Positions 9,106 through 25,442 of a stretch of DNA of 64,000 nt are shown here, in pieces. Positions within the stretch are counted from its first letter, which is position 1; the number at the start of each line of letters is the position of its first letter. Both the position numbers and the translations under genes were made by a program. The stretch is taken from IMG/VR virus record IMGVR_UViG_3300048592_000229, positions 1 through 64,000 of that record; one strand, written 5' to 3'. The notes below the pieces were generated by a model. The model was not told the origin of the DNA. It was given only the letters and a program-made list of their open reading frames with translations, and did not search any database. Source of the stretch: a virus.

Positions 9106-10409
9106 CGCGCGTACTCTACCTGAACGATACCAGCCGCTGGCACGTCGGCTCGGCCGTGGCCAGTGAATCCATCGCGTGGGCCATCGTGAAGGCCGGCGGC
9201 GAGATTGTGCGCACGGTCATCACGGGAGATGCACGGGCGTGCGACGACGCATTGCGCGCTGGCGACTATGACGCTCTGGTCATCAACGGCGAGGGCACGC
9301 TGCACGACTGTGAGGATTGCGACTCGCGCGAGTGGCCGGCGGTCCTGATGCGCGCGTGTGAGACGGCGATGCAAGCCGGCAAGCGCGTGGCTGTGGTCAA
9401 CGCGCTGTGGTGTCGCATGAGTCCGGTATTCGCCGACATTCTGCGCGACTGCGATCTGGTGGTGTTCCGCGACACTATCAGCCGCGCGGTGGCTGGCATG
9501 CCGGATGCGCCGTGCTTCCCGGATGCGGCGCTGATGTGCCCGATTCCGACGATTGCCACTGGCGACAAGCGCGGCCACCTGACCGGCACGTCGCCGATGG
9601 AGTGGAATCTGTCGTCCGATCCCGATGCGCGCGTACCACGCAGCGGAGGCGCTACGGCGTGGGTCAAGTACCTGTGCCGGCTGGCCGAGATTGAAAGCCT
9701 GCGGACGTGCCAGCATCACGCCTTGCTGGCGGCGGCCATCGTCGGAACGAGCGTGGTGCCGTGGTCGTCGGAGTTGCTGGGTCGCGGCTGGAAGAACGAG
9801 GGGCTGATGGCGTGGGCGGGGTTGCCAGCGGCCGACTCGCCTGACGCGGAGCCTGTCGAGACGGCGGACCTTGCGCGCGTTCTGGTGGATGAACGCGAGA
9901 AGATGGTGGAGGCGTACCCGATGATGCTGCGGGACGTATTCGAGGGGCGCACGCGGGAGACGGCCGATGCCGCTGGCGATGGAGGGGAAGAAGTGATCAT
10001 CGATAACGTCACCATCTTCAAGGCGCACGTTCGACCGGAGCGTACGTCGCTGATAGGTGGAACATGGCCAGCCATCGACTTCGGGCCAGACTGGTGCAGC
10101 ACCACCGTCGCAAACCTGCTGGCCAATATCGACGGCGGATATTACCCGACCGTCCACATGGGCCACCACGAGTCCGGTAAGCTGCCGGAGCATGTTGGGT
10201 TCGTCACGGGCGCAAGGTACGACGCCGATTCCGAGACGATAGTCGTGAGGATGGCCCTGCACATCGCCGAAGGGACTGATTTTGATGCGCTGCGGCCGAG
10301 TGTTGAGGTTGCTGCCGAACGCCCTGAAATCCTGTCGGTGGCGCTGATCCACGGCCCGCTGGACGCCGGGATTGACAAGCACGTGCCGATGCTCGGGAGC
10401 TACCTGTGA
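9102..10409 (+). CDS. pyruvyl-transferase-like domain fused to prohead-protease-like domain
   Basis: Residues 1-290 resemble polysaccharide pyruvyl-transferase or GT-B-type proteins: an N-terminal WHVGSAVASESI stretch, then VINGEGTLHD in place of the usual GGG loop. Residues 300-435 resemble the protease domain encoded at 26690: NVTIFKA, YYPTVHMGHHESG, RPSVEV and ILSVALIHG align with VEIFQA, YLPPVHIGHHKG, YRSVEI and ISSLALL, so the putative His and Ser are kept. An in-frame GTG at 9993 after GGAGGGGAAGAA could yield the C-terminal domain alone. No stop separates the two parts. Confidence 0.6.
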   Translation: MTRVLYLNDTSRWHVGSAVASESIAWAIVKAGGEIVRTVITGDARACDDALRAGDYDALVINGEGTLHDCEDCDSREWPAVLMRACETAMQAGKRVAVVNALWCRMSPVFADILRDCDLVVFRDTISRAVAGMPDAPCFPDAALMCPIPTIATGDKRGHLTGTSPMEWNLSSDPDARVPRSGGATAWVKYLCRLAEIESLRTCQHHALLAAAIVGTSVVPWSSELLGRGWKNEGLMAWAGLPAADSPDAEPVETADLARVLVDEREKMVEAYPMMLRDVFEGRTRETADAAGDGGEEVIIDNVTIFKAHVRPERTSLIGGTWPAIDFGPDWCSTTVANLLANIDGGYYPTVHMGHHESGKLPEHVGFVTGARYDADSETIVVRMALHIAEGTDFDALRPSVEVAAERPEILSVALIHGPLDAGIDKHVPMLGSYL

Positions 10410-11089
10410 ACCGCATCGCCATGGTCCTGTTCAAGCCGCCAGGCAACCTGCCGGCCTACTCCAGCGGGTTTTCCCCGGCCTACGCCGACCGCGTAGCGCG
10501 CAACATCTATCGGCACGCCGGGTCGAGAACGGAAGTCGTCGTGTTGACCGACTACCCGGCCGACGACTTCACTGAAGGCCAGACGCTGCTGCCGTTCCAG
10601 CACCCGGAGCGCGGCTGGTGCTCGCTGATGGAGTTGTTTCGCCCTGACGTTGTGCGCGGCGGCGCGCTGCTGATCGGGCTGGATACGGTGTTTGTCGGCG
10701 GGCTTGACCGCGTGTGGAATGCCATTCGCGAGCACGGATACATCGCCTGCGGTGGGCGCACCAACCTGCCGGACGCGTTCAGCAACAGCGTCGTCGGTAT
10801 TGACGCGAAGCACGCGGCTGCCGTGTGGGAGGATTGGTGCCACCGCCGCACGGCGGACTTGCCGAACAAGCGATACTGGCTCTACGGCGCGTTCTCGGAG
10901 ATGTTCTGGCTGCGGGATCGGCACCCGTCGAATGCGTACTGGCAGAAGGTGCTTCCGGGCCGCGTGGTCAGCTACAAGCAGCACCTGGACCGGATGCGTC
11001 CGGGCGATGACGTGGCCATTTGTTATTTTCATGGGGAACCGAAACCGCACAATCTGGCGGACGAGTGGATCAAGCGGGAGTGGGCGTGA
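10406..11089 (+). CDS. glycosyltransferase-like protein, 227 aa
   Basis: It has a GT-A-like outline: RIAMVLFKPPG start, EVVVLTDYP, a LIGLDTVFVGG segment with LD at the usual DxD place, and a C-terminal ICYFHGEPKPHNL, a His-containing block seen in many small phage and bacterial transferases of the GT8-like type. It starts at GTG overlapping the previous TGA and is followed immediately by a sulfotransferase-like gene. Substrate unknown. Confidence 0.65.
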   Translation: MNRIAMVLFKPPGNLPAYSSGFSPAYADRVARNIYRHAGSRTEVVVLTDYPADDFTEGQTLLPFQHPERGWCSLMELFRPDVVRGGALLIGLDTVFVGGLDRVWNAIREHGYIACGGRTNLPDAFSNSVVGIDAKHAAAVWEDWCHRRTADLPNKRYWLYGAFSEMFWLRDRHPSNAYWQKVLPGRVVSYKQHLDRMRPGDDVAICYFHGEPKPHNLADEWIKREWA

Positions 11090-11682
11090 TGGCCGTTTAC
11101 ACGCCGCGTCTGGTCTACGTCCACATGCCGAAAACGGCCGGCACGTTCGTGCAGTCCACGCTGATTTCCAGGGCGCGCGGAGAACGTCGCGGTGGGCACA
11201 CGCTAGCGCGCGATATCCCGACCGGGCGGCTGCTGCGGCGCAAGGTGTTTGGCACCGTGCGTGAGCCATGCGCGTGGTACGAATCGCTGTGGCTGCATTC
11301 TGTGCGCGACGGCTACTGTAACCGCACGTTCGGCGATTGCATGGCGCGCTGGCTGGATGTGCGCAATCTCGGCGGTGTGTGGCACCCGCTGCCGCCATTC
11401 AGGCGCATCACTCTGCCGGATGAGCCGGTCGGCCTATGGACGGCGGCCGTGCGTGGCTGGTACGGCAACGGCAACGGCGGGTGGGCGGTAGACGCGCTGG
11501 TGCGTGTCGCGCACCTGTCGGACGGGCTGCGGATACTCGGCGTGGACGCGAGCTGTCAGCCGCGCGAGAATGAGCGCCCGGCGGGTGAATCGGTGGAGTG
11601 TACGCCCCGGATGCGTGAGGCGGTTGCGCGCGCGGATGGCGCGATGTGGGAGCAACTACGGGAGGCAGTGACGCATGTTTGA
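11089..11682 (+). CDS. sulfotransferase-like protein
   Basis: Near residue 10, VYVHMPKTAGTF matches the PAPS 5'-phosphosulfate-binding loop (PKxxGT), and around residue 55, VREPCAWYESLW matches the 3'-phosphate-binding RxP...S block of cytosolic and bacterial sulfotransferases. At 197 residues it is compact but spans both signature sites. It should transfer sulfate from PAPS to a hydroxyl, most likely on a sugar. The start overlaps the upstream stop. A second, related gene lies at 13829. Confidence 0.75.
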   Translation: MAVYTPRLVYVHMPKTAGTFVQSTLISRARGERRGGHTLARDIPTGRLLRRKVFGTVREPCAWYESLWLHSVRDGYCNRTFGDCMARWLDVRNLGGVWHPLPPFRRITLPDEPVGLWTAAVRGWYGNGNGGWAVDALVRVAHLSDGLRILGVDASCQPRENERPAGESVECTPRMREAVARADGAMWEQLREAVTHV

Positions 11683-11935
11683 CAACGACCGCAGGGAATG
11701 GTGGTTCGCGCAGGGTTACGGCATCGCCACGCCAGCAGCGGTTCGCAAAATCACGATCCACTACCGGAGGCGCGCAAAGCCACACCGTTCACAATTCGAC
11801 AGCGGACGCACACTGGCACGCACTGAGCGGCTGATCGGCTCGCCGTTCGACGCCGACGAATTGGCCCGTTGGACAGAGCAGGCGCGGCGCGGATACGAGT
11901 TCCAGAAGGAATTGATGCGAACGGAGTCCGAGTGA
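11675..11935 (+). CDS. hypothetical protein, 86 aa
   Basis: Small basic protein with a tryptophan-rich start (REWWFAQGYG) and a helical RWTEQARRGYEFQKEL tail. It overlaps the sulfotransferase gene by 8 bases and the next start by TGATG. Its place inside the cassette suggests co-expression; no domain is recognised. Confidence 0.6.
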   Translation: MFDNDRREWWFAQGYGIATPAAVRKITIHYRRRAKPHRSQFDSGRTLARTERLIGSPFDADELARWTEQARRGYEFQKELMRTESE

Positions 11936-12411
11936 TGTTTGACGGGCAGACCGTAGCACTGGTGGGAAACGGCCCGGCAAGCCGCGCATACGACGCCGTG
12001 GACGCCTGCGATGCCGTGATCCGCTGCAATCTCTACCGGCTGGGCCACGACACGGGATGGGTGACGACGCACCACGCCATGAACGCGGCCGAGTTGGCCC
12101 GCGAGACACCGGCCGGCGTGAAGCGCATCGCGTGCGTGCCGTCCGACCGACTGCGCCATGTGCCGGGTGATTGCCAGCACGTTGACGTGTGGCTGCCGCG
12201 TGACTGGCTGCGCAGGCTGGACGAGCGAATGACCGCGCGGCCGTCTGTCGGCTGCATGCTGACGCACTGGCTGCTGGAGTGCTGCAATCCGGCGCGAGTC
12301 GTGATGGTAGGTTTTTCGTGGTGCAACCATTCGGTTGCCAAGGTGCATGATCTGGAAGAGGAACGGCGCATGTTTGACGCGGCTGACACGCGAAAGGTGG
12401 TGCTACTGTGA
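11935..12411 (+). CDS. GT29/sialyltransferase-like protein, 158 aa
   Basis: The N-terminus TVALVGNGPASR followed by DAVIRCN resembles the L sialylmotif of family 29 transferases (VGNGPS ... D.VIRfN), which binds the CMP-sugar donor. ARPSVGCMLTHWLLE lies where the S motif would be. It is short for the family, so it may be a minimal or divergent form. The donor sugar cannot be read from sequence. Coupled on both sides. Confidence 0.6.
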   Translation: MFDGQTVALVGNGPASRAYDAVDACDAVIRCNLYRLGHDTGWVTTHHAMNAAELARETPAGVKRIACVPSDRLRHVPGDCQHVDVWLPRDWLRRLDERMTARPSVGCMLTHWLLECCNPARVVMVGFSWCNHSVAKVHDLEEERRMFDAADTRKVVLL

Positions 12412-12905
12412 TTCCGGTGAAACAAAGCAACCGGCACGATCCCGACAATGGCGTGTGGGGCGACTGCCACCGGGCGGCTGTCGCGAGCATCCTGAGATTG
12501 CCGTTGGAGGCCGTGCCACACTTCTGCGACGGCGGACCGGATGCCGATGAGTTTGTCCGCAGGGAGCGCAATTTCCTGACCAGCGTCGGACTATTCGCGG
12601 TCGAGTTTGCATGGGCCGCTGATCTTGATGAAGTTCTGGCGACGATGGGCGAGCGATACGACGGAATCCACTACCTGCTCGGCGGGTGGAGCCGCACTGG
12701 ATGTAACCACACGGTTGTTTGCTGCGGTAGGCGAATCGTCCATGATCCGTCGCTGGATGACAGCGGTATCATCGGTCCGATGGAACCGACCGGGCGCTAC
12801 CACGTCACCATGTTCGGGGCGATGTGGCCGTGCTCAGTTGCGGCGAAGTCTGAAAGGGTCAAGCAGTGGTACGAGAGCCGGATAAAGGAGCTCATGCACC
12901 GATGA
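12408..12905 (+). CDS. papain-like cysteine peptidase family protein
   Basis: GDCHRAAVASILRLPLEAVP near residue 19 holds the candidate nucleophile Cys at a helix start, and HTVVCCGRRIVHDPS around residue 100 holds the candidate His and following Asp. This layout defines a common phage family related to C39/papain-like peptidases, usually uncharacterised. It could process a protein, act as a transglutaminase-type enzyme, or be inactive. It starts at GTG overlapping the GT29-like gene, inside the sugar/sulfate cassette. Confidence 0.65.
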   Translation: MIPVKQSNRHDPDNGVWGDCHRAAVASILRLPLEAVPHFCDGGPDADEFVRRERNFLTSVGLFAVEFAWAADLDEVLATMGERYDGIHYLLGGWSRTGCNHTVVCCGRRIVHDPSLDDSGIIGPMEPTGRYHVTMFGAMWPCSVAAKSERVKQWYESRIKELMHR

Positions 12906-13447
12906 TTGACACCGTGGAAATCTGGTGCCCCGGTCAATCGCTGGTGCCGCATCATCCGGTCGGCGAGTGGGTCATCACAGTCAACCGCGCATCGGCCGCG
13001 TGGCACGAATGGCGATACAGCCAGTACGGCACAGACGCCCGCTGGTGGCACGTCAGCCGCGACGTGGAACAACTGCGCGCAATGCGCGAGATGATCGGCT
13101 ACGGGCTGGTTGCGCCGGACTGCATCACGTCCAGCAAGGCGTACGGGTTTGAGTGCGCGACGATGTTCCCGGACTCGCGCTACCTGCCGTTCGAGTGGAC
13201 CGACGCATTCTGCGGAAGCCTCCGGTTCAAGCTGACGAAGATCGTGGCGCTGGCCGTGGCTCACATGATGGGCGCGCGCAAGATCGTGATGCACGGCGAC
13301 GATATGGCCGGTACGGCCGATTGGGACGGCACCGTGCTGCCGGGGTATGATCGCACCGACGAGCGATGGGAGAAGGAGCGGCGCGACACGGAAGCGGCCG
13401 TGAAGCTGCTGGAACAACGTGGCACGAGCGTGGAGTGGGCAAAATGA
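12902..13447 (+). CDS. second GT29/DUF115-like transferase, 181 aa
   Basis: VEIWCPGQSLVPHH followed by WVITVNRA mirrors the VALVGNGP...VIRCN arrangement of the gene at 11935, suggesting a nucleotide-sugar-binding Rossmann-like fold of the GT29 or DUF115 kind. VAHMMGARKIVMHGDDM in the second half is a strand-turn-helix with an acidic pair. It is linked by ATGA to the peptidase-like gene. The activity is inferred from this resemblance only. Confidence 0.5.
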   Translation: MIDTVEIWCPGQSLVPHHPVGEWVITVNRASAAWHEWRYSQYGTDARWWHVSRDVEQLRAMREMIGYGLVAPDCITSSKAYGFECATMFPDSRYLPFEWTDAFCGSLRFKLTKIVALAVAHMMGARKIVMHGDDMAGTADWDGTVLPGYDRTDERWEKERRDTEAAVKLLEQRGTSVEWAK

Positions 13448-13728
13448 GCGAGAACGAAATCACGGGTATGGGGATGGCGGCGGCGAACATCCTTGACGAC
13501 CTGTATTCGGTGCGCATCCAGTTCTGCGAGAAGCACGACGTGACGCCCGGCGCGTGCGCGTTCATCGCTCTACTGCCGCTGTGGGCAGAGCAAAGCGTGC
13601 GGCTGATTCACTCTGACGGCCGCTGGCCAACGAATACCGGAATTGCCTACGGGAAGTGCGTCAAGGGCTGGTGGGTGATCTGTGTCACGCCGTCTGGCAC
13701 GGTCGAGAAATGGAAGGTGGCAGAATGA
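13444..13728 (+). CDS. hypothetical protein, 94 aa
   Basis: A helical N-terminal part (MGMAAANILDDLYSVRIQF) leads into aromatic-rich strands (CVKGWWVICVTPSG). It overlaps the previous gene by ATGA and ends 9 bases before the tRNA gene. No family recognised. Confidence 0.6.
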   Translation: MSENEITGMGMAAANILDDLYSVRIQFCEKHDVTPGACAFIALLPLWAEQSVRLIHSDGRWPTNTGIAYGKCVKGWWVICVTPSGTVEKWKVAE

Positions 13729-13737
13729 TGACCACTC

Positions 13738-13808
13738 GCGCCATTCGCCTAACGGTCGGGCACCGGGCTTCCATCCCGGCGAAGCGGGTTCGACTCCCGC
13801 ATGGCGCT
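13738..13808 (+). tRNA. tRNA-Gly(UCC)
   Basis: A full cloverleaf can be drawn: acceptor GCGCCAT (13738-13744) with ATGGCGC (13801-13807), D stem GCC/GGC, anticodon stem CCGGG/CCCGG around loop CTTCCAT with anticodon TCC at 13770-13772, a 4-base variable region, and T stem GCGGG/CCCGC with loop TTCGACT. The discriminator is T and CCA is not encoded. It reads GGA and probably other GGN codons. It sits between two genes of the cassette. Confidence 0.92.
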
Positions 13809-13828
13809 TTCCAACCAGAGGAATCCTG

Positions 13829-14497
13829 ATGCCGGTCTACTCCGACAACCCGCCGCTGTGCGTCGTTCACATGCCGAAGTGTGGCGGCACGTGGGTATCG
13901 TCCATACTCCGCACGCACTGCGCGGCGCGAGAACTGAACGGACACCAGTGGGCGCGCGACGTGACGGCGGCTGAACTGACCGGCGGGGTTGCGCGACGGT
14001 GCGAGCACTGCGGCCACGTCCCGGCACGCAAGATGATCGGGCTGCTCCGCGACCCCGCCGACTGGTACGCATCGCTGTGGGCGCACGCCTTGCGCCGGCA
14101 GCCGCTGCGGCTCGCTGAGATTGGCGGCGGCAGCGTCAACTTCGCGGACGTGCTGCGCGTGTGGACGACGCCCGATGCGCTGTCGTGCGTGCGCAACCCG
14201 ATGGCGTTCGTGGACACGCCGGCTGCAAGCGGACCCGGCGGTCTGTGGTCACACGCCATGCGCTGGTGGTACGCTGACGCCGATGGGAACTGGCTGTCGA
14301 CGTGGTGGCTGTGGGCTGGCCGGCTGCGAGCTGACCTGTCGGAATTGATCGGCGTGGCGTTGCCGGTGCATAGCTACCCGGCCGAGAACGTCGGCAAGTA
14401 CATGGTGACGTGGACGGACGAAATGCGCGCGATGGTGCGCGAAGCAGACGGCGACAACTACGCGGAGAGGATGGCGACATGGACAACGCAGAAGTGA
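13829..14497 (+). CDS. sulfotransferase-like protein
   Basis: CVVHMPKCGGTWVSS near residue 10 is a PAPS 5'-loop of the PKxGGT type, and LLRDPADWYASLWAH near residue 75 is the partner 3'-phosphate-binding block. The gene is a paralogue of that at 11089 in order of motifs and size (222 aa). An inserted CEHCG pair may bind metal. The ATG at 13829 has an AGAGGA site; the frame is open upstream through the tRNA, but translation from there is not expected. It ends the cassette. Confidence 0.75.
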   Translation: MPVYSDNPPLCVVHMPKCGGTWVSSILRTHCAARELNGHQWARDVTAAELTGGVARRCEHCGHVPARKMIGLLRDPADWYASLWAHALRRQPLRLAEIGGGSVNFADVLRVWTTPDALSCVRNPMAFVDTPAASGPGGLWSHAMRWWYADADGNWLSTWWLWAGRLRADLSELIGVALPVHSYPAENVGKYMVTWTDEMRAMVREADGDNYAERMATWTTQK

Positions 14498-14712: not shown

Positions 14713-17085
14713 ATGGTTGCCGAAGGCCGTGAAATCGTCTACAGCCTGAGTGATGCTCAGTACGACTTTCTCGCCAGCGAGAAGAAGCTGGTCGGTTTCA
14801 TCGGGGCTATCGGGAGCGGGAAGGCCCAGCCGGTTGATTGCCCGGTGCTAACGCCGATGGGATGGTGCCCAATCGGCATGATTCGGCCCGGCGACAAGGT
14901 GATAGGCCAGAGCGGTGATCCGGTCAGCGTCGTCAGCGTTCACCCGCAAGGCGTGCGCGCCGTTTATCGAATCACGTTCGCCGACTACACATCAACGCGC
15001 TGTTGCGGAGAGCACATCTGGCGTCTGTTCAGTTGGGACAGCGGGAAGTGGGAGTTGCTGGACACGATGACCGTGCGCCAGCGGATGCAAGTTGAAGATG
15101 AGCGGCTGTACCTGCCTGAAATCGGCGTCCCGATCAGCTACGACGATGAAGCGATTGACGATAGTTGCAATCGCTACGTGATTGACGTGGAGCCGGCTGG
15201 TGAGGCCGAGTGCGTTTGCATTGCCGTGGATTCCCCGGACGGCCTTTACGTCACAGAGAACCACATTGTCACGCACAACACCTGGATTCTCGCCCGATGG
15301 ATAGCAGAGATGGTCATGTGCTACCCCGGTAGCATCGGCTTGATCGGTGCGAACACCTACAAGCAGCTTGCGCAATCGACGCTGCCGCACATCTTCGCGG
15401 CGCTGTACGACATTGGCTTGCAGCACGGTCGCGACTTCGTGTGGAACCGCACGCCGTCATTCGGCTACCGCAGCAAGTTCCCTCCGGCCGAGCACGATGG
15501 CATTCTGTCGTTCGCCAACGGTACGCAGATCGTCACGCGAACGCTGGACAACTACGAGGCGATTCGCGGCATCGAGATTGATTGGGCCGGGCTGGACGAA
15601 ACGCGCGACACCGCCCGCGAGGCGTTCGACGTGGTGATGGGCCGTATGCGCGGAAAGATCGGTCCGCACCGCATGCGCGTGGTTACTTCGCCGGCCGGAT
15701 TCAACTGGCTGCACGCGGTATTCGTGGAGGAAGTTGACGCCGACAACGAGCGGCCGGAGAACGAAAAGAAGGGGCTGGCTCGGCAACGCGAATACTTCAA
15801 CGCAAGCATCTACGACAACCGCCAGAACCTGCCGGAAGGCTACATCGAAAGCCTTGAAGCGCAGTATGACGAAGTGTTCGCGCTACAGGAATTGCACGGC
15901 AAGTGGGTGAGCGTCGGAAGCGGCCGGGCGTACATCTTCGAGCGTGCGGCGCACACGTTCCGCAGCGGATACTACGAGGCGCACGACTCGCTCTATCTGA
16001 CGTGCGACTTCAACACGGGTGGCGAATCCCCGCAGTGCTGGATCGTGGCGCAGCACGACCGCGACGGGATTCTGCGCGCGATAGACGAGATTGTGCTGAA
16101 GTCGCCCGGACCCGGCATGAGCATCACGGAGACGGCCGCGCGCGTCTTCCTTGACCGCTACGGCAAGCATCAAGGGTTTGTCGAGGTGTTCGGCGACTAC
16201 TACGGCAGCAGCCGGGCCACGAATGCCGCGCTGACCGACTACCAGTTGATTGCGCGCATCCTGCGGCCGACGTTCGGCACACGGCTCGCCATGCGCGTCA
16301 GGGCCGACGATCCGAACAGCGAAGGCGGCAACCCGCGCGTGATTCTGCGCGTCAGCCAGGTCAACGCGCTGTTCCGCAACGTCCACGGCGAAAGCCGCTG
16401 TGCGATCAGCGACCGATGCGTTACGCTGATCCGCGACTTTGACGGGGTGACGTGGAAAGAGTATGGCGTGATAGACAAGCGGGACAAGAGCCTCACACAC
16501 GCATGCTTCCCGGCTGGCCAAATGGTCGATACCACTAGCGGGCCGAAGCCGATAGAACATATAACGGCTGGTGATGAACTGGTGTCGCCTGACGGTGAGC
16601 CGTCTGTGGTGCTGGGAGCGGGTTGCACCGGGTTGCGCCCGCTCGTCCGGGTGACACTGGAAGACGGGCGAACAATCACATGCACGCCTGACCATCCCTT
16701 CGCCGTCCCGGGCGACGGGTGGCGACGGGCGGATCAGATGCAGGGAGTCGCGACGTGTTCAAGACCGGCGCAAAGGCTGGTCGGCGGAATCCGTAGCACG
16801 CCTGTTGAGCGGCGGCGTATTGCTCCAGAAGTTGCCGAACAAGGGCCATGCATCGTCAGCGTCGAGAGCGTAGAGCCTGACTTCGTGTACTCGCTCGCGA
16901 CGACCGCTGGCACGTACTTCGTCAACGGGACGCTCGTTTCAAACTGCGACGCGTGGGGGTACTTAGTGCATTCAGTAGCAGGGCGGAAAATCAGGGACCG
17001 CAAAGACGTGCCACGCATCGGGCAAGCGCACGTCGGAGCGGATGGCAGGCCGATCATGGACGGATACAAGCCTGAGAGGCCATAG
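14713..17085 (+). CDS. terL: large terminase subunit with two inteins
   Basis: The packaging motor ATPase and nuclease. The P-loop GAIGSGK-T is split by intein 1 after residue 37. The rest of the ATPase follows, with IDWAGLDE as Walker B. The RNase H-like nuclease shows LTCDFN, VFGDYYG and, split by intein 2, LTHA-CDAWGYL, carrying the three metal-binding acidic residues. The precursor is 790 residues; removal of 152 and 147 residues leaves a normal-sized 491-residue terminase. The start ATG follows the previous stop by 3 bases. Confidence 0.93.
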   Translation: MVAEGREIVYSLSDAQYDFLASEKKLVGFIGAIGSGKAQPVDCPVLTPMGWCPIGMIRPGDKVIGQSGDPVSVVSVHPQGVRAVYRITFADYTSTRCCGEHIWRLFSWDSGKWELLDTMTVRQRMQVEDERLYLPEIGVPISYDDEAIDDSCNRYVIDVEPAGEAECVCIAVDSPDGLYVTENHIVTHNTWILARWIAEMVMCYPGSIGLIGANTYKQLAQSTLPHIFAALYDIGLQHGRDFVWNRTPSFGYRSKFPPAEHDGILSFANGTQIVTRTLDNYEAIRGIEIDWAGLDETRDTAREAFDVVMGRMRGKIGPHRMRVVTSPAGFNWLHAVFVEEVDADNERPENEKKGLARQREYFNASIYDNRQNLPEGYIESLEAQYDEVFALQELHGKWVSVGSGRAYIFERAAHTFRSGYYEAHDSLYLTCDFNTGGESPQCWIVAQHDRDGILRAIDEIVLKSPGPGMSITETAARVFLDRYGKHQGFVEVFGDYYGSSRATNAALTDYQLIARILRPTFGTRLAMRVRADDPNSEGGNPRVILRVSQVNALFRNVHGESRCAISDRCVTLIRDFDGVTWKEYGVIDKRDKSLTHACFPAGQMVDTTSGPKPIEHITAGDELVSPDGEPSVVLGAGCTGLRPLVRVTLEDGRTITCTPDHPFAVPGDGWRRADQMQGVATCSRPAQRLVGGIRSTPVERRRIAPEVAEQGPCIVSVESVEPDFVYSLATTAGTYFVNGTLVSNCDAWGYLVHSVAGRKIRDRKDVPRIGQAHVGADGRPIMDGYKPERP
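14824..15279 (+). other. class 3 mini-intein in the TerL P-loop
   Basis: 152 residues between GSGK and T. It starts with Ala (AQPVDCPVLTP) rather than Cys or Ser and ends VTHN before Thr. The class 3 signature can be read: Trp66 after the block B His (EHIW), Cys132 in block F (VCIAVDSPDGLYV) and Thr150 in block G. In class 3 inteins the block F Cys starts splicing instead of residue 1. No homing-endonuclease domain is present. Confidence 0.85.
16504..16944 (+). other. class 1 mini-intein in the TerL nuclease site
   Basis: 147 residues from CFPAGQMVDT to GTLVSN, followed by Cys. Block A has Cys1, block B has TCTPDHPF with the conserved TxxH, and block F is DFVYSLATTAGTYFVNG. The penultimate residue is Ser instead of the usual His, a known variant that still splices in some inteins. 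It interrupts the third catalytic acidic motif. There is no endonuclease domain. Confidence 0.87.
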
Positions 17086-17096
17086 GAGACGAGCGG

Positions 17097-17522
17097 ATGA
17101 ACGTGATCCCATTGGGCGAAAGGTTGATTGTGCGGCGGAACGAAGCGGCGACCCACACGCCGGGCGGGCTGGCGTTGCCGAGTCGGGCGCAGGATCGGCC
17201 GCAGAGTGGCGTGGTGCTGGCGGTCGGACCCGGCCGACTATCGGCGGCGCAGAAGCTGTCACGTCTGTCGCAGGCGGCGCGTGCGCTGCTGGATGCGCTG
17301 AAGCGCAACCAGAACGATCAGCAGCCAAGCGTTGTCGCCGAATTCGAGGCGGTAGAGGCCGCGCTGAACGCCACGGCGACACCGATGCGCATCAAGCCCG
17401 GCGATACCGTCATGTTCGGCAAGTTCGCCGGCAACGAAATCGTGGTGGACGGCGAAAAGGTGCTCATGCTGGCCGAAGGCGACGTGCTGGCCATCGTGGA
17501 GCCTGCGGAGGTGACGACGTGA
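17097..17522 (+). CDS. groES: GroES-like co-chaperonin with helical insertion
   Basis: The ends are clear GroES: MNVIPLGERLIVRRNE, a mobile loop HTPGGLALPSRAQDRP, GVVLAVGPGR, then IKPGDTVMFGKFAGNEI, GEKVLMLAEGDVLAIVE. Between them, residues 49-98 are a charged helical insertion (KLSRLSQAARALLDALKR, AEFEAVEAALN) where GroES normally has its roof hairpin. It should cap GroEL during folding of phage proteins, probably the capsid protein. AGGAG precedes the ATG; it follows TerL directly. No GroEL is encoded in the window. Confidence 0.9.
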   Translation: MNVIPLGERLIVRRNEAATHTPGGLALPSRAQDRPQSGVVLAVGPGRLSAAQKLSRLSQAARALLDALKRNQNDQQPSVVAEFEAVEAALNATATPMRIKPGDTVMFGKFAGNEIVVDGEKVLMLAEGDVLAIVEPAEVTT

Positions 17523-18252: not shown

Positions 18253-18491
18253 AAACAACGCGAATTGAAATCGTCGTATTCACCGGCACCGAGACCGCGT
18301 GCCGCAGTCTGATCAAGAACCACAAGCGCGGAGTCCCGGTAACGGACGGGGTTGGCGGCGGCGTGATCGGCAGTGTCGCAATCCTTCGGCATGATAAGCT
18401 GGACGGCCGCAGCGTGGTTCTGGCAACGGTGGATATCGACAACGTTCCGCCGCAGCCATACCGTTCAATCGAAGTCGAGGGGGTGCAATGA
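18249..18491 (+). CDS. hypothetical protein, 80 aa
   Basis: A beta-rich small protein (TRIEIVVFTGTETACRSL, SVVLATVDIDNVP). Its start region GGGGGTGCAATGAAAAC is repeated almost exactly at the start of the next gene, and both upstream genes end GVQ. It is in the head gene string; function unknown. Confidence 0.6.
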   Translation: MKTTRIEIVVFTGTETACRSLIKNHKRGVPVTDGVGGGVIGSVAILRHDKLDGRSVVLATVDIDNVPPQPYRSIEVEGVQ

Positions 18492-18832
18492 AAACCACCA
18501 TTGACCGTGCCGACGTGCCCCGCATGGCTATGCTGCCGGGCCGCGTGATGATCGACCTGACGGAGCGCAGCCGCGTGCCGGAAGCGCATCGCCACTGGTA
18601 CGTTACGCCGCAATCGGACGCGACACGCCGGCAGGTAGAGCGGCAGGGGACGATACTTGCAATCGGGCCGGACTGTCGCGATGATATCCGCGTTGGGGAC
18701 TGGTGCTGGTTCCTTCTGGCAATGAACGACCTGGACCGTGGTCATTGCGAGGGGGAAGAACTGCACGTCAGCGATGGTGGCATGCTGATCGTGCTGGATG
18801 ACGTGCAGGTTGTGGCCGTGCGCAGGCAGTAG
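18488..18832 (+). CDS. second GroES-fold protein, divergent
   Basis: MLPGRVMIDLTER, GTILAIGPDCRDDIRVGDWCWFL and GGMLIVLDDVQVVAV follow the order of the GroES strands (PLgDRViVkr, GeVLAVG...vGD.VlF, .ViseDvLAIV). The mobile loop is replaced by a different segment (VPEAHRHWYVTPQ). It may be a second, specialised co-chaperonin or a GroES fold used as a structural protein. ATGA coupling upstream. Confidence 0.65.
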   Translation: MKTTIDRADVPRMAMLPGRVMIDLTERSRVPEAHRHWYVTPQSDATRRQVERQGTILAIGPDCRDDIRVGDWCWFLLAMNDLDRGHCEGEELHVSDGGMLIVLDDVQVVAVRRQ

Positions 18833-18851
18833 TGGAGTCAGGCAAAGGGGG

Positions 18852-20354
18852 TTGATCGCCTACAAAAGCCCGGTTTCCCCGAGCGAAAATCTGACGCGGC
18901 GTGACCCATCCGGCACACCGCGTCGAGTGGCATTCTACCGCCGCACGCGGCCCGACCTTGACAACGTGCGGTCGCAGCTATTCGCGCACAAGCTGTGGCT
19001 GGACCCCGACGACTATGCGGCATCGCGCGACCCGAAGGTGTTGCGGAAGATGTTCCGCGACTCCACGATCCAGATGGCGGCGCAGTTCCGCCTCTCGCGC
19101 GTGGCGGGTGCTGAATGGTTCCTGGACTCCAAGGTACGCGACAGCCGGCCGCTGATTCCGCACCTTGAGCACCTGATGAACATGATCCCGAACTTCGCGC
19201 AGAGCCGCATGGCGCTGGCGAACGGGATCTTCGAGGGGCGGTCGTGGCTGAAGATGTACAGCGGGCGGAAGCGGTTCCGCATGCCGGGCGACACGCAAGA
19301 GCGCGTCTGGTGGTATCCGGCGATGCTCGGGCATATCAGCGCTGGCCAGATCATCCGTGGCGTCGAGCAAGTGCGGGAAGCCGACAGCGACGGCCTGGTT
19401 GAGAAGCAGCGGTACTATTGGGCCACGATGGACCCGACCAGCCCCGGCGCGCCGTGGCTGCGCGTCGAGGATGACCAGCTTGCCAGCTACGTCCGGCTGC
19501 ACTACCACGACGACGCGCTGACCTACGGCTACGGCACGCCGCTGACGGACGCTTTGTACCAGACGTGGTACGCGAAAACGCACCTGTGGGAGATGATGCT
19601 GCGCCACGCCGACCGCTACGGCACGCCGCAGATCGTGGCGACGATGCGCGCCGATGCCACGACCGGCGTCAACATGGGCGAAGACCTGCAATCGCAGTCG
19701 GCCCGGCGCGCGCAGCTAGTGGCGGATATCGAGAAGCAACGCGCCGGCAACGTGATCGCGCTGGACGACGCCGAGAAGATCGAGGTGTTCAGCACGCGCG
19801 GCGAGGATTCGTCTGGACTCCGCGCGCTGCTGGAATACTGCAACGAGGAACTGACGCGCACCATTCTGGCGTCGTCCATGCCGTTCGGCGGCGGTGGCGA
19901 TGCTGGCAGCTACGCCCGTGCGCAGACAGAGCGCAGCAGCACCGACGACTTGCTGGCGTTCGACCGCACCATCATGGGCGAGTCGTTGCAGTCGCTGGTG
20001 GTGATGTGCTTCGAGATGAACCGGCAGAACTTCGCGCACATGCAGGACGGCACCGGCCGGTTCCTGCACACGATGGGCGATATCCTGCCGACCATCGGAC
20101 TGCGCTCGCCGGATAGCGGCGTGAGCGTCGAGAACGTCGAGCGGGCGCTGACAATGGGCCTGCCGGTTCGTCGTCAGGATGCGTACAAGGCGCTCGGCCT
20201 GACCATGCCGGACGAAGACGACGACGTGATCCAGCCGCCCGGATTCGGCGGCGGTGGTGGCCCGCCCGGCATGGGTGGCCCAGCAACCGACGTGTTCGGC
20301 GGACCCGCACCGGGGGCGAATAGCACGGTTACAGCAGACGGGGTGATGCAATGA
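18852..20354 (+). CDS. Mu-like portal protein (DUF935-like)
   Basis: The central core (HLWEMMLRHADRYGTPQIV) and the C-terminal RALLEYCNEELTRTILASSM followed by GSYARAQTERS match the portal family of Mu gp29. The ring of portal subunits is the DNA entry vertex and docks TerL. The C-terminus is a Gly/Pro-rich tail after residue 455. The start is taken as TTG at 18852 behind AAAGGGGG, since the ATG at 18798 would lie inside the previous gene without a ribosome site; the true N-terminus is uncertain. Confidence 0.8.
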   Translation: MIAYKSPVSPSENLTRRDPSGTPRRVAFYRRTRPDLDNVRSQLFAHKLWLDPDDYAASRDPKVLRKMFRDSTIQMAAQFRLSRVAGAEWFLDSKVRDSRPLIPHLEHLMNMIPNFAQSRMALANGIFEGRSWLKMYSGRKRFRMPGDTQERVWWYPAMLGHISAGQIIRGVEQVREADSDGLVEKQRYYWATMDPTSPGAPWLRVEDDQLASYVRLHYHDDALTYGYGTPLTDALYQTWYAKTHLWEMMLRHADRYGTPQIVATMRADATTGVNMGEDLQSQSARRAQLVADIEKQRAGNVIALDDAEKIEVFSTRGEDSSGLRALLEYCNEELTRTILASSMPFGGGGDAGSYARAQTERSSTDDLLAFDRTIMGESLQSLVVMCFEMNRQNFAHMQDGTGRFLHTMGDILPTIGLRSPDSGVSVENVERALTMGLPVRRQDAYKALGLTMPDEDDDVIQPPGFGGGGGPPGMGGPATDVFGGPAPGANSTVTADGVMQ

Positions 20355-20593
20355 GCACCGTCTGGACACACCTGTTTGCCTGCGGTCACGCGATTCTGGC
20401 CGATTGCGTCCAGTGGGCGGCGCACAGCGGGCTACTGTGTCCGGCGTGTGCCGAGAACGTGGTGGAGTCGGCGCTGGTGGCCGTGCGGAACCGGAGACGT
20501 GGCTACAAGGTGGAAGTGCTGACCGCCGACCGTCCGCTGGTCTGGAACGGTCCGCAATTCGTTGGCTACTGGCCGGAGAACCGTGATGCCTGA
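20351..20593 (+). CDS. small cysteine-containing protein, 80 aa
   Basis: It begins MSTVWTHLFACGHAILADC and has a second pair LLCPACAENV, suggesting one zinc site made by CxH/C and CxxC. The rest is short strands with aromatic residues. It overlaps the portal stop by ATGA and the next start by 8 bases. No known family. Confidence 0.6.
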   Translation: MSTVWTHLFACGHAILADCVQWAAHSGLLCPACAENVVESALVAVRNRRRGYKVEVLTADRPLVWNGPQFVGYWPENRDA

Positions 20594-23500
20594 TCCGCGC
20601 CTGTCGCGTCCACCGTTGCCGCCCGGCGTCACTTGGCGGCCGGGATTGCCGCCGGGCGTCAAGCCGGTTGATCAGCGATTCCCCGCCGTGCGTGCGCCAC
20701 GCATGCCGCGCAAGGGCCAGCGAAACCTGCTGACCACGCTGGAATCGCTGCCGCCCGGTACGCGCGTGCGCGTGACGAACATCCTGCGGCGCGGCGGACA
20801 GCGTGGTGGACCCGGTGCGAAAGCCGCGTTCAACTTCATCATCGGCGCGCGGCCGACGTGGACGAACAAGACCGGCCGTTCCGGCTGGGCCAAGCCCGGT
20901 CAAGTCGAGCGGTACGGGCTGAAGCTGATCCGCGACGAAGACCGGGGCGGTGCGCCGCGTCTGCTGAATACTCAGAGTATGGTGCGCGTGGACGTGCTCG
21001 GCGACGATGGCGAGTCGTCACAGACCTACCGCCGCAAGCGTGGCAGTCACAACGCGGTGCCGGTCAGCGAGCGTCGGTATGCGCGTGACGCCGCACGTCG
21101 CACGCAAGGTGCGAATCAATCACTGTTCTACCCGCGCGGGCAAGGCCCGCAGGACACCGGAGACGAAGCCGTGCAGCCGATCAAACACTGGCGCGGTAAC
21201 CGTGGCGCTGAAAACTTCCGCCGTTGGCTGAACGTGCGCGCATCGCGCCCGTGGTCGCCTGTGCGCCCGAAGGACGTGGAAGCACCGCCCGGCGAGGCGT
21301 ACAACGAGGATGCCCGCACGGCGGTTCACTTCGCCGATGACGACGGCATGCGCGGGCTGTACATCTGTATCGACCTGGACGAGTGGAACGCCAAGCGATA
21401 CCGCGAGAAGAAACCGGAAGACGACAGCCCGCCACACATCACGGTCCTGTACATGGGCAAGCAGTCGAGCGCGACGGCAGATGCGGTGGCCGAGAAGGTG
21501 TCGGCCGCGTTGAACGAAGTGGCGCAGTTCGGCGTTGAGGGTATCGGCCGTGACGTTTTCGAGAAGTGCGAGGACGGCAAGGATGCGGTGTACACGCCGG
21601 TCCACGGCGAGGAACTACATGCACTTCGCCGGACGATCCAGTCGGCGGCGCGGTCCGCTGGCGCTGTGTGGTCCGATACGCACCCGATCTACAAGCCGCA
21701 CGTCACCATAAAGTACGTCGAGCACGGAACCGGAATGGACGTGGAGCCGGTGGACAACTGGTATCAGACAGTGGACAAGGTGGCGATTCGCCACGGCGAC
21801 CGGCTCGTGTCAACCGCCCCGCTTGGCAAGCCGCGCGCCAAGTTCTCGGAGTCGGTCCACTTCTCCAATCCCGTCGGCGCGGAGTCGGCCGGCGCAAACA
21901 CCGTCAGCCAGTTCCGCCGCGACATTCACGGAAAGCGCCGTCGTGGCGTGTCTGGCCCGTCAGTGGCGCAGCGGTTCGCGGCGATGTTCTCGGCGGCTCC
22001 ACGGTCGCGCATGCTGCCGGGTACGTCTGGCGCTGGCCAGTTCGTGCGCGAGCGCGTGCCGGGCCAGTACCGCGCGAATGTGCTGCGCTCGATGCGCGTT
22101 GCGAGCACAACGGCACCGGAGCAGGCGTTCAGCATCCTTCGGCCAGACGAGTTGGCGACGCCATACGACAGCGACAATAGCGGGCAGAACAGGGTTATCG
22201 ACTCACGGTCACGGCTGACTCACGCCGTTCCGACAGGCGGACGCAATCTTGATCCGTATGGCGAAAGCCAGTCGCATGGCTTGAGTCGCGATACTCCAAT
22301 TGGGACGGGCGCTCTGTCAAACAGGATCAGGGCTGCAATCCCGCGCCCAGAACACCCGGACGACCCCTATGATCCGCGCGGTGTAGCTCATAGAAACCTG
22401 AGCCACCAAGCCCTCACGGGGTCACTTGGTAGTCCGACCACACCAGCCGACATTGAGGCTAGCGGCATCCGGTATCTCGGCAATGATTCATCTGGCGCGG
22501 ATTCAGAGTTGCGAGTGATGCGAAGGCGGCACGGTGCGCCAGAAGCAAGCGAGATGCGATCCCTTCCAAGGGCAGGGCAAAACTCGATGGACAACCTGCG
22601 AGAGTTGCTGGCTCGGAATGAGATGATCCGCCCAACGTCGCTGGCGAATATGATTCGTGCGGCACGCATGCTCGGCGACGTTGCTGGGTCGCCTGTAGGT
22701 GCGGTGCGCGGCGCTCGCCGGTTGCGTAGAGAGAATCCGCTGGCCCGTGCTGGCATTCAGCGGTTCGCTACGGTGCAGGTAGGCGACCAGCCGGTTGAGG
22801 TGCCCGACACGCTGGCCAACCGGCTCGGCGTTGTGCCGGTTCCCGCAGTGGGCATCACGCCGACCGGCGGCATCACGCAGCCGCGCCAGCCGGAGCGCAT
22901 GGACGGCCAGCGGTTCGCGCTGAAGGACATTCCGGGCTGGGACACGAGCGACACGCTCTCGCCGATCAACGAGGAAGAGCGGCGCATCACGGGACTGCGC
23001 GGGTTGACCGGCCAGCAGCGGAAGGCGGCTAGCCGTGGAGAGCGAGTGGATACGAGCGGTCGCCGAACAGGCGCACGCGGAGGGCTGCTGCCCAAGAGTC
23101 CTACATCGGAAGGTGAGTGGCCAGCGAACGGAGACCCTCGCGATGACGCCGTCGCCATGAATGGTCAGGTGTCACGGCGTATCAAGAACTACCACATCGC
23201 GACAGATGGAGAGTCCGGCGGGGTTGAAGCAGCGAATATCGCCGATGCACTTGAGCGGTTCGGGCTACCAGCCAAGGTGCGGTCGCGGAGAAATTTCCAC
23301 CGCTGGCTCGATCAGGCTGGCGGTTTCGGGCGAATTGAAGAATTGTCTCGCGGGTCGGCGGTGGTGCCAATGACCCCCGCTCGTCTGCGAATGGCCATCG
23401 AAGCGCAGTCCGGAATCGGCCGCATTTCGCGCCTTGAACGCCAGCCGCGCGAAGCGGCTATGCGCCGGGGTCTGCCCGGACTGCCAGCAGGTGGCCAGCG

Positions 23501-25442
23501 CAGCAACTTCTCGCAAGCGCAGCAATTCGCGCGAACCCGAAGCGGCACGCACGGCATGACGACCACCGGCCTGTTGCCGGGACCACCGACCGCTGGCCAG
23601 CGCGCGATGATTGCAACCGGCGGAAAGCTGGGACACGACCCGCAGACCGTGCAATCCATGATGCGCCAGCGTCGGCCGATGGCGCGCGCCAAGTGGCCCG
23701 CACGCGGTAACGACGAAGTGATTGACGCGCTGCTGGGTCGCGGCAAGACCGGGCGTACATTCCCCGGAGTCGTGACGTTCGCGCGCGACTTCGAGCCGTT
23801 GAACATCCAGCGTCAGCGCGGCATCAAGCGCCGGATGATGCGCCGCCCGTCCGCTGACTTCGAGCCGCTGACAATTCCGGCGCAGGAGGGCGACGACTTC
23901 AGCCCGCTGACTATTTTGCGTCGCGCAGCCGCGAAGAAGCAGACGCCCAACCGGCTCGCATACATCGACCGCGCGCGCAATCTGCGCCGCCCGCCACAGG
24001 CTGGCGAATCGCTCGGGCAAGAGTTTGACGACGATGACGACCGCGCGAACGATATCGCAACGATCCAAAGCGGTTACGCATCCAGCGGGTTTGCGCCGCG
24101 TCGTCGCCTTGGCGAGCATCAGATTCGGCAGATGACGGACCCGCGCGAGCGCCGCATGCGGTCGCTGGCTGACGATTCGCCACGTATCGGACCGGAGCGG
24201 ACAGACCGGCCGCGCGTTGTGGAGCGTGACGATCCGGCACCGGCCGCTCCGCTGACGCCACGATCCGCTCTGGCTATGTTCCCGAAGCGTCCGCAGCAAG
24301 GACGCCAGCAGGCGACCAGCGCCCGCAGTCCAATGCCCACCGTGCGGCAGGTTCCTCGCGACGTTGGCCGCGTCAGCCGTGAACCGGTCAGCGCGCAGTT
24401 GCAGCGCGAGTTTTTGCCCGCTCGTCAGCGTGGCGTCGCGTTGCCGCAGCGTCAGCGCGGAGATGTGTCGTGGTCGCCCGGCAATCGCGGGGCGCGACCG
24501 GAAGCCAGCGCGATGCTCCGGCGTAGCGGGTTCGGCCCGAAGCCAGACCGCACATGGAACCAACTAATCAGCCGCGCGCGTGGTGAGCAGGCCGCCAGTA
24601 ACCGCACAGCCGGTCGCGTCAAGAGCGCAATCGGTGGCGGGCTTGGCGGGCTTGCGCTCGGCGCGTTGACTGGCGGTGTCGCTGCGCCCATCGGTTCGGC
24701 GCTCGGGTCGTACATCGGATCGACCGATTGGGGACGCCGCGCCGCATCGCGTGCCGGGCGCGCCGCACAAGGCCTGATCGGTGGCTTGCGTGGCCAGCAG
24801 CGCGGTACTGGACGTTCGGCCGCTGTCGGGCAACTGGCTGGTCAAGGGCTGCGCCGTGCGGGCGGGTTCATTCGTCGCCGGCTCGGATTCAGCATGGACG
24901 GACAGCGGTTCGGCGTGGACGACACATTGCAGCGCATGCGCGGATACAGCGGCGGGTTCACCATCCCGGAGATTGCGCCCGACCACAACCCGATGCGCGA
25001 CGCCTACGACCGCATGCCGACAGGCCAGCGCACGATGATGAAGCGCATGGTGGGCGAGGCGCAACTGGCGCTGGCACGCCGCCAGAACAACGCCGACGCG
25101 CTGCACAACTACGGCACGCCACGGATCAGCCGCATGCTACGCGGCGGCGCAGGACGCCCGCGCGGTGGTGCAAGGTTCGCGGCCGGTGAGCGCGGTGGCT
25201 TCATGGGTGCGCTCGGCCGCGTCGGCCGCATGGCCAGCTACGCGCTGCCCGGCTCGCCTGTGCGCACGTATCGTGAGTTGCGCCAGAGCGGGCGCGGACG
25301 GCTCACTTCGGCACTAGCCGGCGCGGCCGGAACGGCGCTGGACCTGACGGCGGTTCCGGGGAGCGGCGCGAGCATGGCGGTTCGGAGGCTGCTGCGCAAG
25401 CGGCAGGGGCAGCAGTTTGCGAGGTGCGCACGGGGGGCGTGA
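20586..25442 (+). CDS. giant minor-head/ejection-type protein with 2H phosphoesterase domain
   Basis: 1618 residues, Arg/Gly-rich and largely disordered, placed where Mu-like phages carry the minor head protein. Residues 230-400 hold a 2H phosphoesterase domain with motifs PPHITVLYM (His284, Thr286) and YKPHVTIKYVE (His372, Thr374). Residues 428-447 (NPVGAESAGANTVSQFRRDI) resemble the N-terminus of the major capsid protein. Further on are repeats DFEPLNI, DFEPLTI, DFSPLTI, several QRFA-like sites and a C-terminal hydrophobic Gly-rich region. Residues 535-720 are lower in GC. Probably packaged with or ejected before the DNA. Confidence 0.75.
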   Translation: MPDPRLSRPPLPPGVTWRPGLPPGVKPVDQRFPAVRAPRMPRKGQRNLLTTLESLPPGTRVRVTNILRRGGQRGGPGAKAAFNFIIGARPTWTNKTGRSGWAKPGQVERYGLKLIRDEDRGGAPRLLNTQSMVRVDVLGDDGESSQTYRRKRGSHNAVPVSERRYARDAARRTQGANQSLFYPRGQGPQDTGDEAVQPIKHWRGNRGAENFRRWLNVRASRPWSPVRPKDVEAPPGEAYNEDARTAVHFADDDGMRGLYICIDLDEWNAKRYREKKPEDDSPPHITVLYMGKQSSATADAVAEKVSAALNEVAQFGVEGIGRDVFEKCEDGKDAVYTPVHGEELHALRRTIQSAARSAGAVWSDTHPIYKPHVTIKYVEHGTGMDVEPVDNWYQTVDKVAIRHGDRLVSTAPLGKPRAKFSESVHFSNPVGAESAGANTVSQFRRDIHGKRRRGVSGPSVAQRFAAMFSAAPRSRMLPGTSGAGQFVRERVPGQYRANVLRSMRVASTTAPEQAFSILRPDELATPYDSDNSGQNRVIDSRSRLTHAVPTGGRNLDPYGESQSHGLSRDTPIGTGALSNRIRAAIPRPEHPDDPYDPRGVAHRNLSHQALTGSLGSPTTPADIEASGIRYLGNDSSGADSELRVMRRRHGAPEASEMRSLPRAGQNSMDNLRELLARNEMIRPTSLANMIRAARMLGDVAGSPVGAVRGARRLRRENPLARAGIQRFATVQVGDQPVEVPDTLANRLGVVPVPAVGITPTGGITQPRQPERMDGQRFALKDIPGWDTSDTLSPINEEERRITGLRGLTGQQRKAASRGERVDTSGRRTGARGGLLPKSPTSEGEWPANGDPRDDAVAMNGQVSRRIKNYHIATDGESGGVEAANIADALERFGLPAKVRSRRNFHRWLDQAGGFGRIEELSRGSAVVPMTPARLRMAIEAQSGIGRISRLERQPREAAMRRGLPGLPAGGQRSNFSQAQQFARTRSGTHGMTTTGLLPGPPTAGQRAMIATGGKLGHDPQTVQSMMRQRRPMARAKWPARGNDEVIDALLGRGKTGRTFPGVVTFARDFEPLNIQRQRGIKRRMMRRPSADFEPLTIPAQEGDDFSPLTILRRAAAKKQTPNRLAYIDRARNLRRPPQAGESLGQEFDDDDDRANDIATIQSGYASSGFAPRRRLGEHQIRQMTDPRERRMRSLADDSPRIGPERTDRPRVVERDDPAPAAPLTPRSALAMFPKRPQQGRQQATSARSPMPTVRQVPRDVGRVSREPVSAQLQREFLPARQRGVALPQRQRGDVSWSPGNRGARPEASAMLRRSGFGPKPDRTWNQLISRARGEQAASNRTAGRVKSAIGGGLGGLALGALTGGVAAPIGSALGSYIGSTDWGRRAASRAGRAAQGLIGGLRGQQRGTGRSAAVGQLAGQGLRRAGGFIRRRLGFSMDGQRFGVDDTLQRMRGYSGGFTIPEIAPDHNPMRDAYDRMPTGQRTMMKRMVGEAQLALARRQNNADALHNYGTPRISRMLRGGAGRPRGGARFAAGERGGFMGALGRVGRMASYALPGSPVRTYRELRQSGRGRLTSALAGAAGTALDLTAVPGSGASMAVRRLLRKRQGQQFARCARGA

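What the first reader, a model, noticed from the sequence alone, without database searches (positions are those of the whole stretch)
14713..17085. Terminase with two different mini-inteins, each in a catalytic site
Seen directly: a 152-residue class 3 type intein (Ala1; Trp66/Cys132/Thr150 signature) splits the P-loop between Lys and Thr, and a 147-residue class 1 intein (Cys1 to Asn, Ser as penultimate residue) splits the third nuclease motif. Known: inteins favour conserved active sites, and class 3 inteins start splicing from an internal Cys. Two inteins of different splicing class in one terminase mean both packaging activities depend on splicing, and both have lost their homing endonucleases. 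Inference: they may act as timing switches for packaging.
Basis: partly seen in the sequence, partly recalled or inferred. Interest (0 to 1): 0.8.

Follow-up and report, generated by a model that had tools for sequence, protein, structure and literature searches.

The report
Phage packaging motor with two mini-inteins
The DNA-packaging enzyme of this uncultivated phage carries two small self-removing protein inserts, one in the ATP-binding site and one in the DNA-cutting site; both look like real inteins of two different chemical classes, but enzymes carrying two inteins, and each of these insertion sites, are already known, so this is a good new example rather than a new kind of system.

Summary
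ORF 14713-17085 encodes a 790-aa terminase large subunit (TerL) with two in-frame inteins. Intein 1 (14824-15279, 152 aa) splits Walker A between Lys and Thr. It has Ala1 and Trp66/Cys132/Thr150, which are invariant in 61 aligned class 3 inteins, and its predicted fold best matches solved class 3 inteins. Intein 2 (16504-16944, 147 aa) sits before the third nuclease Asp (HA^CDAWGY). It is class 1 in type (Cys1, TxxH, Asn147, Cys+1), but lacks the block-F Asp/Asn and His and has a penultimate Ser, so its efficiency is uncertain. Cys+1 is never seen at that position in 80 intein-free relatives. Both lack the central domain that most relatives carry. Precedents: cyanophage Mic1 TerL has a nuclease-site intein at this same site plus an ATPase-domain intein, and M. 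smegmatis DnaB combines class 3 and class 1. IMG/VR holds the same class 3 P-loop plus class 1 nuclease-site combination in a distant TerL (L099), whose near relatives show long, mini and empty nuclease-site alleles. Best reading: two independently acquired homing elements that lost their endonucleases and persist in immutable sites. A timing-switch role is untested. New member of a known kind.

The parts
14713..17085 (+). terL gene: 790-aa precursor, predicted 491-aa spliced terminase large subunit
   Evidence: open frame; Pfam Terminase_6N, PHROG terminase large subunit; boundaries
14713..14823 (+). N-extein, ends at Walker A Lys (GAIGSGK)
14824..15279 (+). intein 1, class 3 mini-intein, 152 aa (Ala1...Asn152), inserted K^T in the P-loop
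   Evidence: PDB sequence hits 6bs8/6rix; WCT columns invariant in 61-sequence alignment; AF2 pLDDT 93; fold hits MchDnaB-1 and MsmDnaBi1
15019..15021 (+). Trp66 of the WCT triplet
   Evidence: invariant in A5/A7
15217..15219 (+). Cys132, predicted block-F initiating nucleophile
   Evidence: invariant in A5/A7; aligns with the block-F Cys of 6bs8
15271..15279 (+). Thr150-His151-Asn152 (block G THN)
   Evidence: invariant in A5/A7
15280..16503 (+). middle extein: Walker A Thr (+1 of intein 1), Walker B, nuclease motifs I and II
   Evidence: alignment A1
16504..16944 (+). intein 2, class 1-type mini-intein, 147 aa (Cys1...Asn147), inserted HA^CD in nuclease motif III
   Evidence: Pfam Hint_2/Intein_splicing; AF2 pLDDT 85; fold hits to solved inteins; homologues at the same TerL site
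16945..16947 (+). +1 Cys of intein 2; this column is N/P/F/V/S, never C, in 80 intein-free relatives
16948..16950 (+). third nuclease Asp (extein D447)
   Evidence: invariant in A1
16945..17085 (+). C-extein

Best explanation
A phage TerL gene invaded independently by two inteins at two of its most conserved sites. Intein 1 is a class 3 mini-intein: Cys132 would attack the Lys37-Ala1 bond, the N-extein would pass to Thr38, Asn152 would cyclise, and an intact Walker A loop would form. Intein 2 is a class 1-type mini-intein: Cys1, then the +1 Cys, then Asn147, joining His-Ala to Cys-Asp and completing the nuclease site. Both once had a central domain (a LAGLIDADG endonuclease in intein 1's kin; an unidentified domain of about 170 aa in intein 2's kin) and lost it. 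They remain because inexact deletion would destroy an essential active site. Shown here: anatomy, homology, fold, signature residues, existence of relatives with and without the central domain and with an empty site. Inferred: that both splice, that the central domain of intein 2's kin is a homing endonuclease, and the loss itself.
For: Boundaries and residues; families and PDB hits; models and fold matches; WCT invariant in 61 class 3 inteins; class 3 relatives at GK^T/S of many phage ATPases, mostly 340-370 aa with a LAGLIDADG-type centre matching PI-SceI, some 138-155 aa; about 16 distinct TerLs in IMG/VR with a class 1 intein at nuclease motif III; allelic series in the L099 lineage: 299 aa, 125 aa, empty; intein 2 groups with L195's intein (100/99; BLAST E 4e-29) while the two exteins share no significant similarity (E 2.4), so the intein moved between TerL lineages; +1 Cys absent from 80 intein-free relatives, and N in the empty L358 allele; no further intein found in the record.
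Against: No splicing was observed. Intein 2 lacks the block-F Asp/Asn and block-F His and has a penultimate Ser, so it may splice slowly, leak cleavage products or be impaired. No close relative of the window TerL was found (best about 28-32% identity), so loss versus ancestral absence of the central domains cannot be dated. Support for intein 1's nearest neighbour is weak.
Confidence: 0.85

Rival explanations
1. The inteins are maintained as regulators: splicing delays or conditions the appearance of active ATPase and nuclease, so packaging and genome cutting start only after a lag or under suitable redox conditions.
For: Both sites are catalytic, both inteins lack endonucleases and so cannot home by themselves, and intein 2 lacks several assisting residues, which could make it slow. 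A class 3 P-loop intein in M. [quoted passage not shown] The same idea was proposed, untested, for Mic1 TerL (PMC7156551).
Against: No test of it here. Published TerL inteins assayed in a reporter spliced readily, with ligated extein predominant (PMC5050341). Intein 1 has no Cys48 equivalent. The nuclease-site intein is absent in near-identical kin of the double-intein L099. Persistence needs no regulatory benefit when precise deletion is required.
Confidence: 0.12
2. Intein 2 (or both) is a decayed, non-splicing or only cleaving HINT domain, so the gene is a dying allele or the phage depends on another TerL.
For: Intein 2 lacks the block-F Asp/Asn and His and the penultimate His.
Against: Frame fully open; Cys1, TxxH, Asn147 and +1 Cys all kept; penultimate Ser is normal for this site; confident HINT fold; all TerL catalytic residues kept; the TerL protein query found only this one match in the record.
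Confidence: 0.1
3. The segments are TerL-specific structural insertions, not inteins.
For: None found.
Against: related inserts occur in unrelated ATPases, and the L358 TerL has an empty nuclease site.
Confidence: 0.01

Closest known systems
Microcystis phage Mic1 TerL (MN013189; PMC7156551)
   Same: Two inteins in one TerL; the second is a 146-aa class 1 mini-intein at the same nuclease motif III site (HL^C...VSN^CDALRY), with penultimate Ser and +1 Cys
   Different: Its first intein is class 1 in type with a homing endonuclease and sits in the ATPase coupling motif (LLTG^TPKG), not the P-loop; neither is class 3
IMG/VR L099 TerL (IMGVR_UViG_3300010280_000219)
   Same: Class 3 intein at the P-loop (GGGK^S) plus class 1 intein at nuclease motif III (GH^C...VHN^CTD)
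   Different: Both longer (276 aa with a LAGLIDADG relic; 299 aa); TerL only about 22% identical; its inteins do not group with the window's
Mycobacteriophage TerL1-a and class 3 TerL inteins (PMC5050341)
   Same: TerL1-a sits between the invariant Lys and Thr of the P-loop; class 3 TerL inteins described and five TerL inteins shown to splice
   Different: All those lie in the ATPase domain; none in the nuclease domain
Mycobacterium smegmatis DnaB (DnaBi1 class 3 in the P-loop, DnaBi2 class 1; PMC6195587)
   Same: Class 3 P-loop intein and class 1 intein in one protein; DnaBi1 lacks an endonuclease
   Different: A replicative helicase; DnaBi2 keeps its endonuclease and lies in a DNA-binding loop
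crAss-like Delta group OBYQ01000140 TerL (PMC7886860)
   Same: TerL interrupted by two inteins
   Different: Described as Hint-Hop type, in a recoded gut phage; class and exact sites not compared here

Membership tests
Class 3 intein (intein 1) | no nucleophile at position 1 | tested here: met
   Ala1
Class 3 intein (intein 1) | WCT triplet: block B Trp, block F Cys, block G Thr | tested here: met
   W66, C132, T150 are invariant columns of the class 3 alignments
Class 3 intein (intein 1) | block B His, C-terminal Asn, +1 Cys/Ser/Thr | tested here: met
   H64, N152, T+1
Class 3 intein (intein 1) | HINT fold closest to class 3 structures | tested here: met
   MchDnaB-1 and MsmDnaBi1 among the top Foldseek hits
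Class 3 intein (intein 1) | splicing through a block-F Cys branched intermediate | not testable with these tools
   needs biochemistry
Class 1 intein (intein 2) | Cys/Ser/Thr at position 1 | tested here: met
   Cys1, invariant in A6
Class 1 intein (intein 2) | block B TxxH | tested here: met
   T61, H64 invariant in A6
Class 1 intein (intein 2) | C-terminal Asn and +1 Cys/Ser/Thr | tested here: met
   N147, C+1; +1 Cys absent from 80 intein-free relatives
Class 1 intein (intein 2) | usual assisting residues (common, not obligatory): block-F Asp or Asn, block-F His, penultimate His | tested here: not met
   VYSLATTAGTYFVNGTLVSN: Ser, no His, Ser. Not a defining requirement; penultimate Ser is standard at this site. 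Hence 'class 1-type', splicing efficiency uncertain
Class 1 intein (intein 2) | HINT fold | tested here: met
   AF2 pLDDT 85, many intein hits
Class 1 intein (intein 2) | splicing through Cys1 thioester | not testable with these tools
   needs biochemistry
Mini-intein (both) | no homing endonuclease domain | tested here: met
   152 and 147 aa; no endonuclease domain matched; relatives carry a central domain
Terminase large subunit | Walker A/B and three nuclease Asp | tested here: met
   G34, G36, K37, T38, E144, D280, D343, D447 invariant in A1

The most novel reading that the evidence does not exclude
The two mini-inteins form a double lock on the packaging motor: a class 3 intein whose internal Cys splices at one rate gates the ATPase, and a class 1-type intein stripped of its assisting residues splices slowly and gates the nuclease, so translocation and genome cutting are switched on in a set order late in infection.
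Probability: 0.07. Interest if true: 0.8.

Novelty: new member of a known kind. Interest (0 to 1): 0.38.

Why it matters
It adds a clear case in which both active sites of one viral motor should depend on protein splicing by two different chemistries. The comparative work also shows that TerL nuclease motif III is a recurrent class 1 intein site (about 16 distinct TerLs in IMG/VR, plus TerLs in two bacterial genome contigs), whereas the main published survey of mycobacteriophage TerLs found inteins only in the ATPase domain. The L099 lineage offers long, mini and empty alleles in closely related TerLs, a natural test bed for whether inteins without endonucleases are kept for regulation or merely cannot be lost.

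Tried and rejected
Close relatives of the window TerL: none found with the 491-aa spliced protein or with an extein alignment, whose patterns demand an intact P-loop and so cannot find P-loop-interrupted relatives; an all-family alignment gave no usable pattern. Common origin of the double-intein state in the window and L099: not supported by trees (long branches, so not excluded). Enrichment of ATPase-site inteins among nuclease-site TerLs: 3 of about 16 (L099, L217, Mic1 clade); no baseline, and the sample is biased by the CTPDHPF search pattern, so no claim. Redox toggle as in DnaBi1: the Cys48-equivalent position is Val in intein 1 (alignment); a CxC at 130/132 occurs in several relatives but its role is unknown. 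Foreign composition: GC of the inteins (0.60, 0.63) is like the gene (0.62), so no sign of recent arrival. Phage and plasmid collections gave as best hits only relatives of this TerL at about 28% identity. A suspected natural split of the class 3 intein in L360/L361 was dropped: the N-terminal TerL part was not found in those records.

Full report
Observation. The window belongs to a 68,384-base virus record. ORF 14713-17085 (+) is open for 790 codons. Removing aa 38-189 and aa 598-744 leaves exactly 491 aa. That product aligns along its length with eight intein-free phage TerLs (26-32% identity) and keeps Walker A GxGKT, the Walker B Glu, nuclease Asp280, Asp343 and Asp447 and the motif-III His. 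The unspliced protein matches terminase families in the exteins and HINT/intein families in the second insert.

Intein 1 (14824-15279, 152 aa). Its best PDB matches by sequence include the class 3 M. smegmatis DnaB intein 6bs8 and the mycobacterial DnaB intein 6rix. A scan of IMG/VR with a small class 3 alignment gave 80 loci; most are inserted at GK^T or GK^S of many kinds of phage ATPase. In alignments of 61 and 58 sequences H64, W66, C132, T150, H151 and N152 are invariant. AlphaFold2 gives pLDDT 93 and the top Foldseek hits are the class 3 inteins MchDnaB-1 and MsmDnaBi1 together with gp41-1 variants. Most relatives are about 340-370 aa and their centre matches the PI-SceI-type LAGLIDADG endonuclease; a minority, like this one and the TerL mini-intein in L116, are 138-155 aa. 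Intein 1 therefore meets the sequence and fold tests for a class 3 mini-intein.

Intein 2 (16504-16944, 147 aa). Pfam Hint_2 and Intein_splicing match, the model is confident except for a loop near residues 85-115, and the fold hits are solved inteins. Cys1, T61, H64 and N147 are kept. The +1 Cys is telling: in 80 intein-free IMG/VR relatives that column is N (67), P (6), F (4), V (2) or S (1), never C. Caveat: the C-terminal motif VYSLATTAGTYFVNGTLVSN lacks the block-F Asp/Asn and block-F His and has a penultimate Ser. Penultimate Ser is normal for inteins at this site, and the sister intein L195 shares the block-F Ser but keeps His. Splicing of intein 2 is likely but its efficiency is not assured.

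How common is it? About 16 distinct TerLs in IMG/VR carry a class 1 intein at this nuclease motif III position, and others carry one a few residues later (DHLMDA^TRY). Two bacterial contigs (a Burkholderiales MAG and Piscinibacter sakaiensis) carry it too. Three of the 16 also have an ATPase-domain intein: L099 (class 3, P-loop), L217 (class 1 type, P-loop) and the Mic1 clade (class 1 type with endonuclease, coupling motif). The window's architecture therefore recurs in L099. Trees put the window's intein 2 with L195 (100/99), not with L099, and intein 1 near L135 (weak support), not with L099. The L195 and window exteins have no significant similarity while their inteins match at E 4e-29, so the intein moved between TerL families into the same site.

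Allelic series. Close relatives of L099 (92-97% over aligned parts) have the nuclease-site intein as 299 aa (L099), 125 aa without the central part (L360, L361) or absent (L358, L359; extein reads GH^NSD instead of GH^CTD). This is direct comparative evidence that the element is a dispensable insertion in that lineage and that mini-inteins exist alongside long forms there. The central domain, about 170 aa, has no Pfam match in the members tested.

Mechanism. The most economical reading is two separate invasions by homing elements at sites that cannot drift, followed by loss of the central domains; splicing then becomes obligatory because each insert separates adjacent catalytic residues. Steps shown: anatomy, homology, fold, alleles. 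Steps inferred: actual splicing, endonuclease nature of intein 2's missing domain, order of events. Regulation by timing remains possible; the same proposal was made for Mic1 TerL without test, while a redox-sensitive class 3 P-loop intein is documented in M. smegmatis DnaB. The disulfide partner in that protein (Cys48) aligns with Val in intein 1.

Literature. TerL P-loop inteins between Lys and Thr and class 3 TerL inteins are published, and five representative TerL inteins spliced in a reporter (PMC5050341). That survey placed all mycobacteriophage TerL inteins in the ATPase domain. Mic1 TerL has two inteins, the second at the site seen here (PMC7156551). A crAss-like TerL has two inteins (PMC7886860). 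DnaB of M. smegmatis combines class 3 and class 1 (PMC6195587). In the library I could search I found no report of a TerL with a class 3 P-loop mini-intein and a class 1 nuclease-site mini-intein together; subscription papers were not searchable.

Verdict. Observation confirmed; interpretation as two inteins of different class in two catalytic sites supported; timing-switch role unsupported. New member of a known kind, moderately interesting.

Noticed in passing
L205, L211, L212, L217, L221-L223, L226, L231, L244 (nuclease-site inteins, central ~170 aa): The long TerL nuclease-site class 1 inteins share a central region of about 170 aa with no Pfam match in the members tested; it may be an unrecognised homing endonuclease type.
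   Followed up: partly
L099 2035-5361, L358/L359 3986-6424, L360/L361 3941-6277: Closely related TerLs with long (299 aa), mini (125 aa) and empty nuclease-site alleles; +1 residue is Cys when filled and Asn when empty.
   Followed up: yes
L200, L216, L218, L219, L243: A second nuclease-domain insertion point, DHLMDA^TRY, with class 1 inteins.
   Followed up: partly
L360 and L361, around 3941-4010: TerL frame starts inside the class 3 intein; the N-terminal TerL and intein part was not found in these records (defective provirus or rearranged gene).
   Followed up: partly
window 17097-17522: GroES-like co-chaperonin (Cpn10, E 8.6e-23) between terL and the portal gene (18798-20354); 18488-18832 looks GroES-like by eye but matched no family.
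   Followed up: partly
window 10406-14497: Run of small genes upstream of terL with weak matches to glycosyltransferase family 29 (11869-12411) and a sulfotransferase domain (13682-14497, a frame that overlaps a tRNA-Gly at 13738-13808, so its true start is probably later).
   Followed up: partly
window 20562-25442: 1626-codon frame with a 2'-5' RNA ligase/LigT-type phosphoesterase domain (E 1.3e-10) downstream of the portal gene.
   Followed up: no
phage records NC_054727, NC_070650, NC_042081 (hits): Intein-bearing genes labelled 'DarB-like antirestriction'; in the Eowyn phage the other copy of the record (LR881104) calls the same place terminase large subunit, so the label looks like an annotation error, perhaps driven by the intein.
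   Followed up: no
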